Source of the DNA: Methanosarcina sp. | GTDB lineage: Archaea; Halobacteriota; Methanosarcinia; Methanosarcinales; Methanosarcinaceae | NCBI RefSeq assembly: GCF_028693135.1 | Contig: NZ_JAQUVZ010000001.1 | Location: forward strand, 1 to 64,000 | Length of the DNA: 64,000 bases | Reading direction: 5' to 3' | Shown: positions 27,562 through 34,367 of the stretch, piece by piece | Layout of the letters: each line of letters starts with the position of its first letter | How positions within the stretch are numbered: position 1 is the stretch's first letter | Translations under genes and position numbers: made by a program | The notes under the pieces: generated by a model | Databases searched by the model: none | The model's input: only the letters and a program-made list of their open reading frames with translations | What the model was told of the DNA's origin: nothing

Positions 27562-28596
27562 TTACCAGTAAACCAGTAAACTTGTAACAGTTCCTTCCAT
27601 GCCAGTAATCGTTCCCTGTCTGAACAGGTACTTTCCACTCAGAGGCTGGCCAATTACCACATTCAATTGCTTATCCTGAAGTGTAGCTCCTCCGGGCACA
27701 CCCGTACAGTCTATATACACAGTCCCCTTGTCGGTGGTTTCAAAAACATTGAAAGCGTGATTAGCTCCTTCTGCACCTACCCAGCCGGCTTTTATACCGG
27801 CAGCTTCTGCATTGTCGTGAAGAGCTTTTGCAAAGTCACTGCAAACATATGTTGAAGTGTAAGGCTTTTCATCGGTCCTGTCAGCTTTCAAAAACACTAA
27901 GAGCTGGTCATAGGTAGGGTTTACTGCGTTGTTATAGTTTTTAAGGGTAAGGACTTCTCCATTCCCCCCAACTGTACAAACATTATTACTACACAGTTTC
28001 ACGGTAGTTGTGCCGGTTGCGTCTGTTGGGGTGACAGGGGGGACGGCATCTCCAGAGTCAGAGGACCCAGAGTCAGAGGACCCAGAGTCAGAGGTTCCAG
28101 AATCAGAGGACTCAGAGTCAGAGGACCCAGAATCAGAGGCTCCAGAATCAGAGGTTCCAGAGTCAGAGGCTCCAGAATCAGAGGCTCCAGAATCAGAGGT
28201 TCCAGAATCAGAGGCTCCAGAATCAGAGGTTCCAGAGTCAGAGGACCCAGAGTCAGAAGTTCCAGAGTCAGAGGCTCCAGAGTCAGAGGTCCCAGAGTCA
28301 GAAGTTCCAGAGTCAGAAGTTCCAGAATTACAATTTCTGTAGTTCCAGTCCGGACACTGGTTACAAATTCCAGAGTCAGTATTTTCTACGGAATTACAAT
28401 TTATGTAGTTCCAGTCTGAATCCTGGTTGCAGTCTGAATGGTTGTAATTACATTCATAATTAGTATATGAATAATTCTTGGAGTAATATTTACCATGCTG
28501 GTACGAATAGGCAGCGGAAGCTGCCGAGGCGGTTAACAGTAAAATTAAAAAAACACTTAGAAGTTTTAGTGGGGTTTTTGTTTTTAACTTATCCAT
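27562..28596 (-). CDS. Secreted transglutaminase-like protein with Ser-Asp-Gly repeat region
   Basis: The protein has 344 residues. Residues 1-28 are a signal peptide (LLSVFLILLLTASAASA, then AYSYQ). A Tyr/Asn/Cys-rich segment follows with repeated DWNYINCN/DWNYRNCN. Residues about 93-185 are tandem SDSGT/SDSGA/SDSGS repeats. The last 150 residues contain a transglutaminase-like triad order: YVCSDFAKALHDNAEAAGI (Cys), ANHAFNVFETTDKG (His) and VYIDCTG (Asp). Such folds act as proteases, amidases or crosslinkers. The SD-type linker resembles serine-aspartate stalks of surface proteins. It is probably secreted or surface-bound. No sorting signal or membrane anchor is seen at the C-terminus. Confidence 0.85.
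   Translation of the reverse strand: MDKLKTKTPLKLLSVFLILLLTASAASAAYSYQHGKYYSKNYSYTNYECNYNHSDCNQDSDWNYINCNSVENTDSGICNQCPDWNYRNCNSGTSDSGTSDSGTSDSGASDSGTSDSGSSDSGTSDSGASDSGTSDSGASDSGASDSGTSDSGASDSGSSDSESSDSGTSDSGSSDSGSSDSGDAVPPVTPTDATGTTTVKLCSNNVCTVGGNGEVLTLKNYNNAVNPTYDQLLVFLKADRTDEKPYTSTYVCSDFAKALHDNAEAAGIKAGWVGAEGANHAFNVFETTDKGTVYIDCTGVPGGATLQDKQLNVVIGQPLSGKYLFRQGTITGMEGTVTSLLVYW
28050..28325 (-). repeat. 15-bp tandem repeat array encoding SDSGx units
   Basis: About 18 units of AGARTCAGAGGNYCC on the plus strand (coding strand GGNNCCTCTGAYTCT) stand in tandem in frame with the secreted transglutaminase-like protein. Units differ mainly in the fifth codon (Thr, Ala or Ser). Confidence 0.9.
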
Positions 28597-30432: not shown

Positions 30433-30672
30433 ATGACAGAAATGTTTACATTTTCCGCAATGGTGAAAAAGGAGAACGAGCTGTACGTATCCTCATGCCT
30501 GGAGCTGGACATATCAAGTAAGGGAAATACGATTGAAGAAGCAGTATCGAACTTGAAAGAAGTGGTTGAGCTTCATATCGAAAAAGAGGGCATCACTCTT
30601 CCGATCAAACGCCCGTTTTTGACAACTTTTAAAGTAACAGGGAAAAGGTCCGGAGAGAAAAAAGTTCAGTGA
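30433..30672 (+). CDS. Orphan HicB-like small protein (second copy)
   Basis: This 79-residue paralogue of the protein at 27212 has FSAMVKKENELYVSSCLELD, GNTIEEAVSNLKEVVELHIE and a Lys-rich tail. As there, no HicA toxin is beside it, and no ribbon-helix-helix or HTH domain follows. GAGGT lies 11 bases before the ATG. Its stop is about 13 bp from the 3' end of the first tandem ncRNA, which is convergent. Confidence 0.75.
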   Translation: MTEMFTFSAMVKKENELYVSSCLELDISSKGNTIEEAVSNLKEVVELHIEKEGITLPIKRPFLTTFKVTGKRSGEKKVQ

Positions 30673-30684
30673 AGAAAACGTTGT

Positions 30685-30848
30685 AAGAAAAAGCTCAGAG
30701 GCACTATTATCCTATTTTACCGTGTCCCCCAACAAAGCAGCCCTGAAGAGATGCTCCCCCAAGCATATTGATCCAGAGCAGGATCAATGGCCTCCGAGCA
30801 GTTCTATATTATATTATATTTATACCTTGCTCACTTCCCAACTCCACA
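30685..30848 (-). ncRNA. Tandem structured RNA, copy A (unrecognised family)
   Basis: On the minus strand a closing stem pairs GCTCGGAGGC (from 30790-30799) with GCCTCTGAGC (from 30693-30702), ten pairs with one G-U. It encloses TTGATCC-AGAGCA-GGATCAA as read on the plus strand (7-bp hairpin), ATGCT-TGGGGG-AGCAT (30751-30766), and a conserved TGTTGGGGGACAC (30722-30734). The 3' side runs into TTTTTCTTAC. Two start points are possible: near 30846 (24-27 nt after the TTTAAA box at 30874-30879) or near 30799 after a TATAAATA inside the region. I know no matching RNA family. Confidence 0.75.
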
Positions 30849-30945
30849 CATATAACATTATATCATTGGATATTTTAAATTAATTACCCAAAATTTTGTT
30901 CTTAAACAAAAATTAATTTAACGTTAAAAAATTCAAAGCAATATA
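30849..30945 (-). promoter_or_regulatory. Promoter and candidate operator of ncRNA copy A
   Basis: TAATTAATTTAAAATA on the minus strand (TTTAAA at 30874-30879) is shared with copies B and C at the same distance from TGGAGTTGGGAAG. Just upstream is TTTGTT-N4-AACAAA (30895-30910), and further upstream a conserved CTTTGAA(AC)TTTTTTA block. Confidence 0.6.
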
Positions 30946-31139
30946 TGGATTTAATTATAAGGCTCAACTAAAGGTTAAACTGCCAACTGCCAAAATTTCA
31001 ACTATGATCTGCAGGCACGTGTTACTTAAACTATCAACCTGGCAGGCATTTCGATGCTCGGTCTTTTGCCATATTAACCTGAAAAACAATATATTTTATA
31101 AATGTAAGTCTCAAAACCATATTAAAGAATAAATTGGCA

Positions 31140-31260
31140 AAAGGCGGAAAAGAAATAGAGAAGAAAACAGAGAAGAAAACAGAGAAGAAAACAGAGAAAA
31201 AAATAGGGACAAAAATAGGGACAAAAATAGGGACAAAAAGGAAAGAATAGAAAAGAATAG
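31140..31260. repeat. Short purine-rich tandem repeats between ncRNA copies A and B
   Basis: Four units of GAGAAGAAAACA, then three of AAAATAGGGACA, fill the space. Long frames on the minus strand with FFSVFFSVFFSV-type translations are artefacts of these repeats. Confidence 0.8.
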
Positions 31261-31282
31261 AAAAGACGGAGTAAGGAAAAAC

Positions 31283-31460
31283 AGTATGAGAGAAGCCCAG
31301 AGGCACTACATCCGTTAGCCATGTCCCCCAACATAGCCTCTCCAACATCATATGCTCCCCCAAGCATATTGATTCGAAGAAAGGATCAGCGACCCCCAGG
31401 CGATTCTCCAAGTGATATATTATATTGGTAGATTACCCAATCTCACTTCCCAACTCCAGT
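31283..31460 (-). ncRNA. Tandem structured RNA, copy B (unrecognised family)
   Basis: The minus strand closing stem is GCCTGGGGG (from 31393-31401) with CCTCTGGGC (from 31295-31303): all nine positions pair, three as G-U, whereas on the plus strand those three would be C-A mismatches. Inside are ATATGCT-TGGGGG-AGCATAT (31350-31369) and the conserved TGTTGGGGGACAT (31321-31333). A 3' pyrimidine stretch CTTCTCTCATAC follows. The TATA-like TTTAAA at 31483-31488 lies 25 nt before the conserved TGGAGTTGGGAAGTGAG at 31458. Confidence 0.75.
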
Positions 31461-31550
31461 ATATACTAATAGCATAAATTATTTTAAATTAATTATGTCA
31501 AAAATTGTTCGGTAACAAATTATATTGTTACGCTAAAAGTTTCAAAACCA
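31461..31550 (-). promoter_or_regulatory. Promoter and candidate operator of ncRNA copy B
   Basis: The minus strand has TAATTAATTTAAAATAA (TTTAAA 31483-31488), preceded by the palindrome TTGTT-N4-AACAA (31505-31518) and the block TTTTGAAACTTTTAG, in the same order as copies A and C. Confidence 0.6.
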
Positions 31551-31639
31551 GCATAAATTATGCACCGATTCTAATTATTACCCAGAAATATTCAACAAGA
31601 GCACTCAATAGAAGAAAAAAAGAATATTGAGAATATAGC

Positions 31640-31795
31640 AAAACAGATCAAAAGCGATCAAAAGCGATCAAAAATTAATTATAACAAAATTAAAACGCAC
31701 TAAAAAAAATATTGATTCACTAAAAAAAATGGTGATTCACTAAAAACAAAAATGATTCACTAAAAAAAAATGATTCACTAAAAACAAAATGACTG
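31640..31795. repeat. Short tandem repeats between ncRNA copies B and C
   Basis: GCGATCAAAA-type units (about 31649-31675) are followed by five AT-rich units of TGATTCACTAAAAA type (about 31710-31790). Confidence 0.75.
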
Positions 31796-31964
31796 TAAGA
31801 AGAAGCCCGGAGTCACCCTTCTCTCTTACTGTGTCCCCCAACAGCAGCTCTGAAAATATGTTCCCATCAAACATACTACCAGAGCAAGAAAGGGCAACTC
31901 CGGGCGATTTTTTTACAATCCGCTAATATTTCTATTCAGTCTTCCCTATCTCTTCCAGCTCCAT
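31793..31964 (-). ncRNA. Tandem structured RNA, copy C (unrecognised family, most diverged)
   Basis: The closing stem is a perfect 9 bp: GCCCGGAGT (from 31897-31905) with ACTCCGGGC (from 31805-31813). Bases differ from copy A but pairing is kept. The second hairpin is TATGTT-N7-AACATA (31857-31875), with loop TGATGGG. The conserved TGTTGGGGGACAC is at 31831-31843. The small hairpin near the 5' end of copy A is lost here. The 3' side runs into CTTCTTCTTACAG. The TTTAAA box at 31988-31993 lies 25 nt before TGGAGCTGG at 31963. Confidence 0.72.
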
Positions 31965-32065
31965 TATATAGTAGTAATGTAAGTTACTTTAAATTAATTA
32001 TACAAAAAATTCATTTCAAACAAAAAACACTATCATGTAAAAAGTTTCAAAGCCATCATCCGACT
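31965..32065 (-). promoter_or_regulatory. Promoter region of ncRNA copy C
   Basis: The minus strand has TATAATTAATTTAAAG (TTTAAA 31988-31993) and the upstream block GGCTTTGAAACTTTTTAC. The TTTGTT palindrome seen in A and B is degenerate here (TTTGTTTGAAATGAA). Confidence 0.55.
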
Positions 32066-32169: not shown

Positions 32170-32242
32170 AGTCCTGTAGGGTAGTGGTCAATCCTTCGGG
32201 CCTTTGGAGCCCGGGACAGCGGTTCGAATCCGCTCAGGACTA
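32170..32242 (+). tRNA. tRNA-Gln (anticodon TTG)
   Basis: The cloverleaf has acceptor AGTCCTG with CAGGACT, D arm TAGGGTAGTGGTCAA, anticodon arm CGGGC-CTTTGGA-GCCCG with anticodon TTG, and T arm AGCGG-TTCGAAT-CCGCT. It decodes CAA (and probably CAG by wobble). A TATA-like TTTATAAG lies at 32145-32152, at the usual promoter distance. No CCA is encoded. Confidence 0.95.
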
Positions 32243-32795
32243 CTAATTTTCATCTGGTCTTAAGTAAAAAGATGTACTATAGAAAGGATTATTGAAAGGA
32301 TTTATTTTTGCACTTCAACCAGTTCCTTTCACATTTTTCTTCTCAGCATTTTTTCAGCTATCCAGCTGATAGCATTGTAAAAACAGGATTTACCGGTACA
32401 TCGACGTAATATTTTACTACCGGGCTGAGCCAGCCATTTTCTTTTCAGTATACATAATCAACAGGAGAACTCTGGACAGGCTTCCCAAAAAATGCCTTTT
32501 GGGCACGAAAAACGAATATATCTCGGAGTCCTGGAGGGAGGCGCCCTTTCTTAAGGAAATTATAAGAAATGAATACAGTTTCCCAAGTTTCTGGTTATTC
32601 TCCTGCTCTCATAACAGACAATCCAGGATTTGAAAAATCTCAATTATATAAATGAAGAACGATTATATATTCTCTGAAAAATATAGTATAAAAGGACGGG
32701 CATTGATTTTCAGCAAGAAACCTTTCCTGTTGAAATGTTCCTACCTTTAGTTTTAGAATATCAGAATCCTTCTGGGGGTAAAAAGAATTCCTTCT
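32243..32795. other. Intergenic region between tRNA-Gln and the PAS protein
   Basis: About 550 bp with no gene recognised. One 7-bp hairpin, CCCAAAA-AATGCC-TTTTGGG, is at 32484-32503. The final 40 bp read in frame into the PAS protein without a usual start codon. Confidence 0.55.
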
Positions 32796-34367
32796 TTGAT
32801 ATCTGAAGATGCAGGACCTGAAGAACTTGAGGCAATAGCAGTTGCAGTACATTCTCTTTTAGGGCTTCCGACCACCATCCGCAGCCTCAAGCGGAAGGGG
32901 CTTCGCCTGGAAAATGGGGAAATCATTGACAGGGACTATACAGGGCCGGTACTCGAAGAGGTGCTCAGGACCGGCATGACTGTGCGTGGAGTCCCAAAGG
33001 GGGGCACTTACCTGGGAAGGAACGTGGCTGTTTGCCCGATCTTCTCGGAGGAAGGGGAGGTAATTGCGGCAATCGGAATTGTGGACCTATTATCTGCCCT
33101 TAAGATGCAGGAAATAATCCGGACCGTAGTAAACAACAGCCCTGCAGTTGTTTTCCTGTGGAGAAGAGATGAAAAATGGCCATCCGAATTTGTGTCGGAA
33201 AACGTAGTCCAGTTTGGATACACGGTTGAGGACTTTATTTCCGGCAATATCCTTTATGGAAACATCATCCACCCCGATGACCAGAAAAAAGTTGAAGAAA
33301 TGCTTGAACAGCGCATCCGGAGAGGTGAAGTTGACTTCAATGCTGAGTACAGGATATTCACAAAAGCCGGGGACCTGCGCTGGGTCAACGAAAGGACATT
33401 TATCCAGCGGAATGAAGACGGAGAGGTAACCCACTTTCAAGGGCTTGTCCTCGATGTAACCGAACGGAAAGAGAACGAAGAAGCTCTCAGGAAATCTTTT
33501 GAAATGCAGAGGCTGCTGAAGACTATAATAAATAACAGCCAGGCAGTAGCTTTTCTATGGGAAAACAAAGAAAACCTGCCTGCCGAATATGTTTCAGAAA
33601 ACGTGACCCAGTTAGGGTACACTGTAGAAGATTTCACAACAGGGAAGATAGTTTACGGAAATATAATTCACAGGGATGACATTGCAAAGGTCATTGAGAC
33701 CCTTAAACGCAACATCGCAGAAGGTCAGGATTCTTTCAGCATTGAGTACAGGATTTTCACAGGAGATGGAAAAATGCTCTGGGTGGATGAGAAAACCTTT
33801 ATCCAGAGGGATAAAGAAGGCAAAGCAACTCATATTCAGGGCATTGTTGTAGACATTACCGAACAAAAAGAAGCCCAGAAAATGCTTGAAGTCCAGCGGG
33901 AACTGGTAACAAACCTTAATACAACCTGGAACCTCCATACCATTCTGGACCTGGTACTTGATGCCTGCTTGCAGATACACGGGCTGGATGCCGGAGGCGT
34001 ATATATTAAGGACGAACTCATGGACCAGATAAATCTTGTTGCATCCAGAGGAATTTCACCTGAATTTAAAGAAAAAGTTTCAAAATATAAAGCAGAATCA
34101 AATGAGGCAAAACAGATCTGGACCGAAAAGCCCATTTACTCGCTGGATTTTTACTCCGAAAATATGGCTGAAGCGGTAAAGGAAGAAGGAATAACAGCAG
34201 TTGCAATAATCCCTCTTAAGTATAGTAACGAAATTATAGGCAGCCTGAATTTAGCCTCCCATACTCTGGATAAAATTCCCTGGAGTATCCGTAACTTCCT
34301 TGAAAGCATTGCTCTCCAGGCAGTAAACCATATAGCTCCGGTCTGTATCCAGGCGGATCTATCGTGA
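32796..34367 (+). CDS. DUF2111-PAS-PAS-GAF sensory protein without output domain
   Basis: The protein has 523 residues from TTG 32796. Residues about 1-100 are a DUF2111 domain (EAIAVAVHSLLGLPTTIRSL ... VCPIFSEEGEVIAAIGIVDL). Two PAS/PAC units follow and resemble each other (VVFLWRRDEKWPSEFVSENV and VAFLWENKENLPAEYVSENV, each ending GLVLDVTERKE / GIVVDITEQKE), so they arose by duplication. A C-terminal GAF domain spans about 365-515. No kinase, cyclase or HTH domain is present, so it must signal to a partner. The start is unclear: the frame stays open about 13 codons upstream with no ATG and no good ribosome binding site, so the 5' end may be damaged. Confidence 0.82.
   Translation: MISEDAGPEELEAIAVAVHSLLGLPTTIRSLKRKGLRLENGEIIDRDYTGPVLEEVLRTGMTVRGVPKGGTYLGRNVAVCPIFSEEGEVIAAIGIVDLLSALKMQEIIRTVVNNSPAVVFLWRRDEKWPSEFVSENVVQFGYTVEDFISGNILYGNIIHPDDQKKVEEMLEQRIRRGEVDFNAEYRIFTKAGDLRWVNERTFIQRNEDGEVTHFQGLVLDVTERKENEEALRKSFEMQRLLKTIINNSQAVAFLWENKENLPAEYVSENVTQLGYTVEDFTTGKIVYGNIIHRDDIAKVIETLKRNIAEGQDSFSIEYRIFTGDGKMLWVDEKTFIQRDKEGKATHIQGIVVDITEQKEAQKMLEVQRELVTNLNTTWNLHTILDLVLDACLQIHGLDAGGVYIKDELMDQINLVASRGISPEFKEKVSKYKAESNEAKQIWTEKPIYSLDFYSENMAEAVKEEGITAVAIIPLKYSNEIIGSLNLASHTLDKIPWSIRNFLESIALQAVNHIAPVCIQADLS

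What the first reader, a model, noticed from the sequence alone, without database searches (positions are those of the whole stretch)
30685..31964. Three tandem copies of an undescribed structured RNA with UGGGGG loops
Seen: three homologous blocks on the minus strand (30.69, 31.28 and 31.79 kb). Each has a closing stem joining both ends. The stem bases differ between copies but pairing is kept: GCTCGGAGGC/GCCTCTGAGC in A, GCCTGGGGG/CCTCTGGGC in B with three G-U pairs, GCCCGGAGT/ACTCCGGGC in C. The G-U pairs would be A-C mismatches on the plus strand, which fixes the strand. Inside, copies A and B show the loop TGGGGG on two hairpins (ATGCT-TGGGGG-AGCAT and the TGTTGGGGGACA element), and C keeps the second. 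Repeated G-rich loops on one RNA recall protein-sponge RNAs such as CsrB/RsmZ, or sRNAs pairing with C-rich targets. The function is inference.
Basis: partly seen in the sequence, partly recalled or inferred. Interest (0 to 1): 0.9.

Follow-up and report, generated by a model that had tools for sequence, protein, structure and literature searches.

The report
Undescribed multi-copy archaeal small RNA family
The three blocks are tandem copies of a real, previously uncatalogued small RNA that every sampled Methanosarcina genome carries in one to about twenty copies, each with its own promoter and a conserved shape that displays two GGGG loops, probably to catch a protein or another RNA partner that is still unknown.

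Summary
Copies A, B and C lie on the minus strand at 30685-30804, 31287-31406 and 31797-31910. They belong to an RNA family present in 31 of 31 sampled genomes of the window's genus (Methanosarcina; 1-22 copies each) and in four genomes of one sister genus. It was found nowhere else in 186 genomes of the order or 393 of the phylum. In 142 aligned copies 93.5% of pair cells are standard pairs, and 30 of 33 pairs show double compensatory changes (390 cells against 106 when shuffled). G-U cells outnumber A-C cells 827 to 84, which fixes the minus strand. Each copy has its own TATA-type promoter (157 of 167 copies), a leader of about 49 nt and T-rich DNA downstream, so the transcript is about 175 nt. 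The window array sits at the same place (beside tRNA-Gln) in about 20 genomes, and A, B and C are separate orthologous lineages. Rfam has no match. The CsrB/RsmZ comparison is only a loose analogy: no CsrA in 31 genomes. Complementary C-runs are not enriched genome-wide or at start codons. Best guess: a trans-acting RNA whose paired GGGG loops bind an unknown protein. Expression and partner are untested.

The parts
30685..30804 (-). structured RNA core, copy A (three-way junction, two GGGG loops)
   Evidence: covariance model R1 97.4 bits, E 1.7e-23 (A is among the rows R1 was built from); fold z -3.2
31287..31406 (-). structured RNA core, copy B
   Evidence: R1 116.1 bits, E 1.2e-28 (B is among the rows R1 was built from); fold z -5.1
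31797..31910 (-). structured RNA core, copy C (first loop altered, second loop kept)
   Evidence: R1 66.5 bits, E 5.3e-15, C not in the building set; fold z -7.7
30805..30846 (-). copy A 5' leader from the inferred start at TGGAGTTGGG to the core
   Evidence: conserved leader start at a near-fixed spacing from the TATA-like box; start site inferred, not mapped
31407..31459 (-). copy B 5' leader (inferred)
   Evidence: as for A
31911..31964 (-). copy C 5' leader (inferred)
   Evidence: as for A
30870..30883 (-). TATA/BRE-like promoter element of copy A (TTAATTTAAAATAT)
   Evidence: element within -100..-55 of the core in 157 of 167 copies, 6 in control segments
31479..31492 (-). TATA/BRE-like promoter element of copy B (TTAATTTAAAATAA)
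31984..31997 (-). TATA/BRE-like promoter element of copy C (TTAATTTAAAGTAA)
32170..32243 (+). tRNA-Gln(UUG), syntenic boundary of the array
   Evidence: ARAGORN; 98-100% identical tRNA beside the array in many genomes
30433..30672 (+). 79-aa UPF0150/HicB-like small protein, syntenic boundary on the other side (not part of the RNA)
   Evidence: Pfam DUF7387 only below its cut-off; present next to the array in other genomes

Best explanation
A, B and C are three genes of one family of independently transcribed small non-coding RNAs. Each has its own promoter, a leader of about 49 nt, a core of about 115 nt folded as a three-way junction, and ends in a conserved pyrimidine tail followed by T-rich DNA. 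The conserved displays are two hairpins capped by a GGGG tetraloop inside UUGGGGGA. The most likely mode of action is in trans: the duplicated GGGG loops are identical recognition sites for an RNA-binding protein, and many gene copies per genome supply the dose, so the RNA titrates or scaffolds that protein. Shown here by comparison: RNA family, strand, structure, promoter, copy number, vertical inheritance. Inferred: transcription itself, action in trans, protein binding rather than RNA pairing.
For: RNA family: 31/31 genomes of the genus plus 4 of a sister genus; 30/33 pairs with double changes, 93.5% of cells paired against 38-55% when the partners are slid; G-U 827 against A-C 84. Own transcription unit: TATA-like box in 157/167 copies against 6 control segments, T fraction 0.48 against A 0.22 downstream, box-to-leader spacing of 34 nt in 87 of about 124 copies. 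Loops: GGGG positions are 87-98% conserved while the stem pairs around them vary; loop G's unpaired with probability above 0.999; the transcript almost lacks CCCC (0.01 per transcript, 0.09 in shuffles) and carries 1.62 UUGGGG against 0.23. Trans rather than cis: the next downstream gene is on the opposite strand in 59 of 163 cases. Protein rather than pairing: no excess of complementary sites.
Against: No expression data were available here. No partner is known; CsrA and Ro/TROVE are absent. The tests against pairing cover only perfect complements and sites near starts, one genome for the word count and 361 genes for the start regions. One subgroup lies just upstream of a 46-aa zinc-ribbon gene (12 of 168 copies), so part of the family could act as a 5' UTR.
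Confidence: 0.45

Rival explanations
1. Trans-acting sRNA that regulates mRNAs (or another sRNA) by base pairing of the UUGGGGGA loops with C-rich sites, as a multi-copy set with redundant targets in the manner of LhrC or Qrr RNAs.
For: The M. mazei sRNAs with a known mechanism act by pairing (PMC5867862, PMC3510493). Identical exposed loops in many copies fit a shared seed. The transcript avoids CCCC, which keeps the loops free.
Against: TCCCCCAA not in excess genome-wide (117 against 136). 0 of 30 sampled sites lie just upstream of a start. C-runs not enriched near starts in M. acetivorans. A G-run cannot mask a Shine-Dalgarno site.
Confidence: 0.3
2. Structural or housekeeping RNP RNA (scaffold of a stable particle), with copy number reflecting dose rather than regulation.
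For: Strong structure conservation, retention in every genome, long-lived orthologous positions.
Against: Restricted to two genera; copy number varies from 1 to 22 and some copies have degenerate loops, unusual for a housekeeping RNA.
Confidence: 0.15
3. Cis-acting 5' UTR element controlling the gene downstream, such as the 46-aa zinc-ribbon small protein.
For: In 12 of 168 copies a conserved 46-aa zinc-ribbon ORF starts about 46-110 nt downstream on the same strand.
Against: Most copies have no such ORF; downstream genes are often on the other strand. In L003, L312, L317 and L324 promoter and ORF persist without an intact core, so the ORF does not need it.
Confidence: 0.07
4. Mobile or selfish repeat (MITE-like element) whose hairpin shape is incidental.
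For: Multi-copy, dispersed, intergenic, with a self-complementary outline.
Against: Strand-specific G-U usage, compensatory changes, attached promoter, same orientation in 25 of 25 multi-copy loci, and positional orthologues across species and a sister genus.
Confidence: 0.03

Closest known systems
CsrB/CsrC and RsmX/Y/Z sponge RNAs (bacteria)
   Same: several copies of one G-containing loop motif on one RNA, multiple RNA genes per genome, no coding capacity
   Different: loops GGGG rather than ANGGA; two loops rather than many; no CsrA in any of 31 genomes; archaeal, with archaeal promoters
LhrC1-5 of Listeria (tandem multi-copy sRNAs)
   Same: tandem plus dispersed homologous copies, each with its own promoter and the same loop motif
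   Different: LhrC exposes C-rich (UCCC) motifs that pair with Shine-Dalgarno regions (own knowledge); this RNA exposes the opposite, G-rich sequence
Methanosarcina mazei sRNA162/sRNA171
   Same: Methanosarcina intergenic sRNAs of 191 nt with duplicated gene and promoter (PMC3510493)
   Different: three separate stem-loops with a 39-nt single-stranded linker and one copy each in M. acetivorans and M. barkeri; this family is a three-way junction with about 10 copies in the M. acetivorans-sized genome
Methanosarcina mazei sRNA154
   Same: two-loop Methanosarcina sRNA of about 130 nt (PMC3177094, PMC5867862)
   Different: published primer sequences (PMC11549558) have at least 8 mismatches to every copy
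Methanosarcina mazei sRNA41
   Same: Methanosarcina intergenic sRNA

Membership tests
any Rfam 15 family | match at or above the family's gathering score | tested here: not met
   window: only three tRNAs; 1.75-kb array with E up to 10: best 15.7 bits, far below cut-offs; eight further loci with diverse copies: only tRNAs plus one match below its cut-off
CsrB/RsmZ-type CsrA-sponge RNA | CsrA/RsmA protein encoded in the same genome | tested here: not met
   PF02599 absent from 31 of 31 genomes, positive controls found
CsrB/RsmZ-type CsrA-sponge RNA | repeated ANGGA motifs in many hairpin loops | tested here: not met
   two loops of UUGGGGGA type; GGGG, not ANGGA
LhrC-type anti-Shine-Dalgarno sRNA | C/U-rich loops complementary to Shine-Dalgarno sequences | tested here: not met
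   the transcribed strand carries G-runs, not C-runs
M. mazei sRNA154 | sequence identity to sRNA154 | tested here: not met
   both published qPCR primer sites have at least 8 mismatches in 167 copies
M. mazei sRNA162/sRNA171 | SL1-SL2-39-nt linker-SL3 layout, one copy in M. acetivorans | tested here: not met
   three-way junction; 10 copies in G001, the genome of M. acetivorans size; no direct sequence comparison possible
M. mazei sRNA41 and the roughly 240 sRNAs of the 2009 transcriptome | sequence identity to a listed sRNA | not testable with these tools
MITE or transposon-derived repeat | mobility: copies at non-orthologous positions without locus-specific lineages | tested here: not met
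   array positions conserved beside tRNA-Gln in about 20 genomes and two genera; A, B and C fall into separate orthologous clades
Y RNA / Ro RNP | Ro (TROVE) protein in the genome | tested here: not met
   PF05731 absent from the window's genome

The most novel reading that the evidence does not exclude
A first archaeal RNA-protein titration system: an unknown Methanosarcina protein that recognises GGGG-capped hairpins is sequestered by a genus-wide set of up to about twenty RNA genes, a CsrA/CsrB-like global control that evolved independently in methanogens.
Probability: 0.3. Interest if true: 0.85.

Novelty: new variant of a known kind. Interest (0 to 1): 0.62.

Why it matters
It is a large, well-bounded RNA family in methane-producing archaea that public RNA libraries do not contain, with very strong covariation support and a defined promoter. 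Species of this genus (M. acetivorans, M. mazei) can be manipulated genetically, so the family makes a direct test possible: what binds a paired GGGG-loop RNA in a cell without CsrA. If the loops bind a protein, it would be a regulatory principle not yet described in archaea.

Tried and rejected
Plus-strand reading with UCCCCC anti-Shine-Dalgarno loops: rejected by G-U/A-C counts, promoter and terminator side. Protein-coding explanation: not supported; the core alignment has indels that break any frame and mechanical ORFs over the array are not shared. MITE: rejected. Literal CsrB: no CsrA. Ro/Y RNA: no TROVE. sRNA154: primers do not match. Mimicry of a neighbouring tRNA-Pro anticodon: dropped, the tRNA is tRNA-Gln. 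Leader-tail pairing (GUAAGA with UCUUAC): seen by eye in some copies, not consistent across subgroups, not pursued. Target prediction from loop complements: no excess. Association with PAS/histidine-kinase neighbours: 34 of 213 neighbour ORFs against 15 of 542 background, 15 of 116 against 15 of 520 after clustering at 65% identity (p 5e-5) but not significant with looser clustering (p 0.2); left as a lead. Literature searches found no description of this family, but key M. mazei papers are not held.

Full report
Observation. The three minus-strand blocks are present and homologous. The minus strands of A, B and C fold with z-scores -3.2, -5.1 and -7.7 against dinucleotide shuffles; the plus strands are weaker.

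Family. A DNA search found homologues in 29 of 31 genomes of the genus. A covariance model (R1, 119 positions, 33 pairs) found it in 31 of 31, with 1-22 copies each, and in the order (186 genomes) only in this genus plus four genomes of one other genus of the family. A second model from 142 copies found it in no further genus among 393 genomes of the phylum, apart from one borderline hit at E 0.025, nor in 41 genomes of the family. G001 has the size of M. acetivorans C2A (own knowledge).

Structure and strand. On 142 copies, 93.5% of pair cells are standard pairs (38.9-54.7% when partners are slid). 30 of 33 pairs have changes on both sides, in 390 cells against 106 in shuffles. The alignment was fitted to the model, so the counts lean towards it; the unfitted 28-sequence MAFFT alignment already showed 14 of 33 pairs with double changes. 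G-U cells number 827 and A-C cells 84; the other strand would reverse this. The fold is a three-way junction. P1 is long and bulged, P2 ends in loop 1 (GCUUGGGGGAGC) and P3 in loop 2 (UAUUGGGGGAUA). Around the loops the stem letters vary and covary; the GGGG positions are 87-98% conserved, 102 of 142 copies keep GGGG in both loops, and the loop G's are predicted to be unpaired.

Transcription unit. A TATA/BRE-like element (TTAATTTAAAATAA) lies 55-100 nt upstream of the core in 157 of 167 copies, against 6 in control segments, usually exactly 34 nt before a conserved TGGAGTTGGGAA (87 of about 124). By the usual archaeal TATA-to-start distance (established knowledge) this puts the start at that motif, giving a leader of about 49 nt and a transcript of about 174 nt. 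The core ends in a conserved CUUCUUCUU tail, and the next 70 nt are 48% T and 22% A, with T5 runs in 123 of 167 copies. No transcript data were available, so expression is inferred.

Evolution. The window array sits between tRNA-Gln(UUG) and a UPF0150/HicB-like small protein, a URO-D-family protein, a CitMHS transporter and an ATP-grasp/methyltransferase protein. The same arrangement, in whole or in part, with 1-6 RNA copies, recurs in about 20 genomes, including the sister genus. In the tree A belongs to a clade of seven positional orthologues (SH-aLRT 100), B to one of three (97) and C to a clade found at the tRNA side of other arrays (support 93; the tree has few columns and most deep forks are unresolved). 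In all 25 loci that hold more than one copy the copies share a strand. Hence an old tandem array, inherited vertically, plus dispersed copies.

Function. The octamer complementary to the loops is not in excess in the genome (117 against 136 for the reversed word), none of 30 sampled sites lies just upstream of a start, and C-runs are not enriched around 361 start sites of M. acetivorans. The transcript avoids CCCC and is enriched in UUGGGG. I therefore favour protein binding by two identical GGGG loops over base pairing, with modest confidence. Downstream genes lie on either strand (104 same, 59 opposite), which speaks against a general cis role.

Known RNAs. Rfam has nothing above threshold. 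sRNA154 is excluded by its primers (PMC11549558; comparison). sRNA162/171 differ in layout and copy number (PMC3510493). sRNA41 and the other sRNAs of the 2009 M. mazei study could not be checked; members of this family may be among those numbered transcripts. Novelty therefore means 'not described as a family in Rfam or in the papers I could search', not 'never seen in RNA-seq'.

Side result. A 46-aa zinc-ribbon protein family (29 of 31 genomes) has members starting about 46-110 nt downstream of 12 RNA copies. In the window's own genome (contig C50) and in L312, L317 and L324 the RNA promoter and the ORF remain while the RNA core is wholly or partly deleted. This suggests that the small-protein gene uses the RNA promoter.

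Noticed in passing
L003:1510-1815 (own genome contig C50, about 62.68-62.98 kb); L103, L112, L123, L126, L148, L155, L161, L174, L186, L205; L312, L317, L324: A multi-copy 46-aa zinc-ribbon small protein (MKHLKICPKCNA...QYCDICSYWTKAGTARLDSIMIYA) is encoded about 46-110 nt downstream of a subset of RNA copies; in several genomes the RNA core is deleted but the RNA promoter and the small ORF remain.
   Followed up: partly
L101, L102, L125, L149, L153, L167, L181 and other dispersed copies; window 32796-34367: PAS-type sensor histidine kinases or PAS/GAF proteins flank RNA copies more often than background (34 of 213 neighbour ORFs against 15 of 542), but the families are hard to cluster and significance depends on the clustering used.
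   Followed up: partly
about 90-140 nt upstream of the core in most copies; copy A near 30884-30930: Conserved block TTGAAAYTTTTTACGTYAAA..TTTTTGYTTnnnAACAA just upstream of the TATA-like box, with an imperfect dyad; a candidate regulator or enhancer site shared by the family.
   Followed up: no
L254 (genome G024): The only detected copy in this genome is C-type with both GGGG loops eroded, suggesting the function is being lost there.
   Followed up: no
window 27562-28596: A 344-aa protein with a long degenerate Ser-Asp-Ser-Gly repeat followed by a transglutaminase-like C-terminal part (judged by eye only).
   Followed up: no
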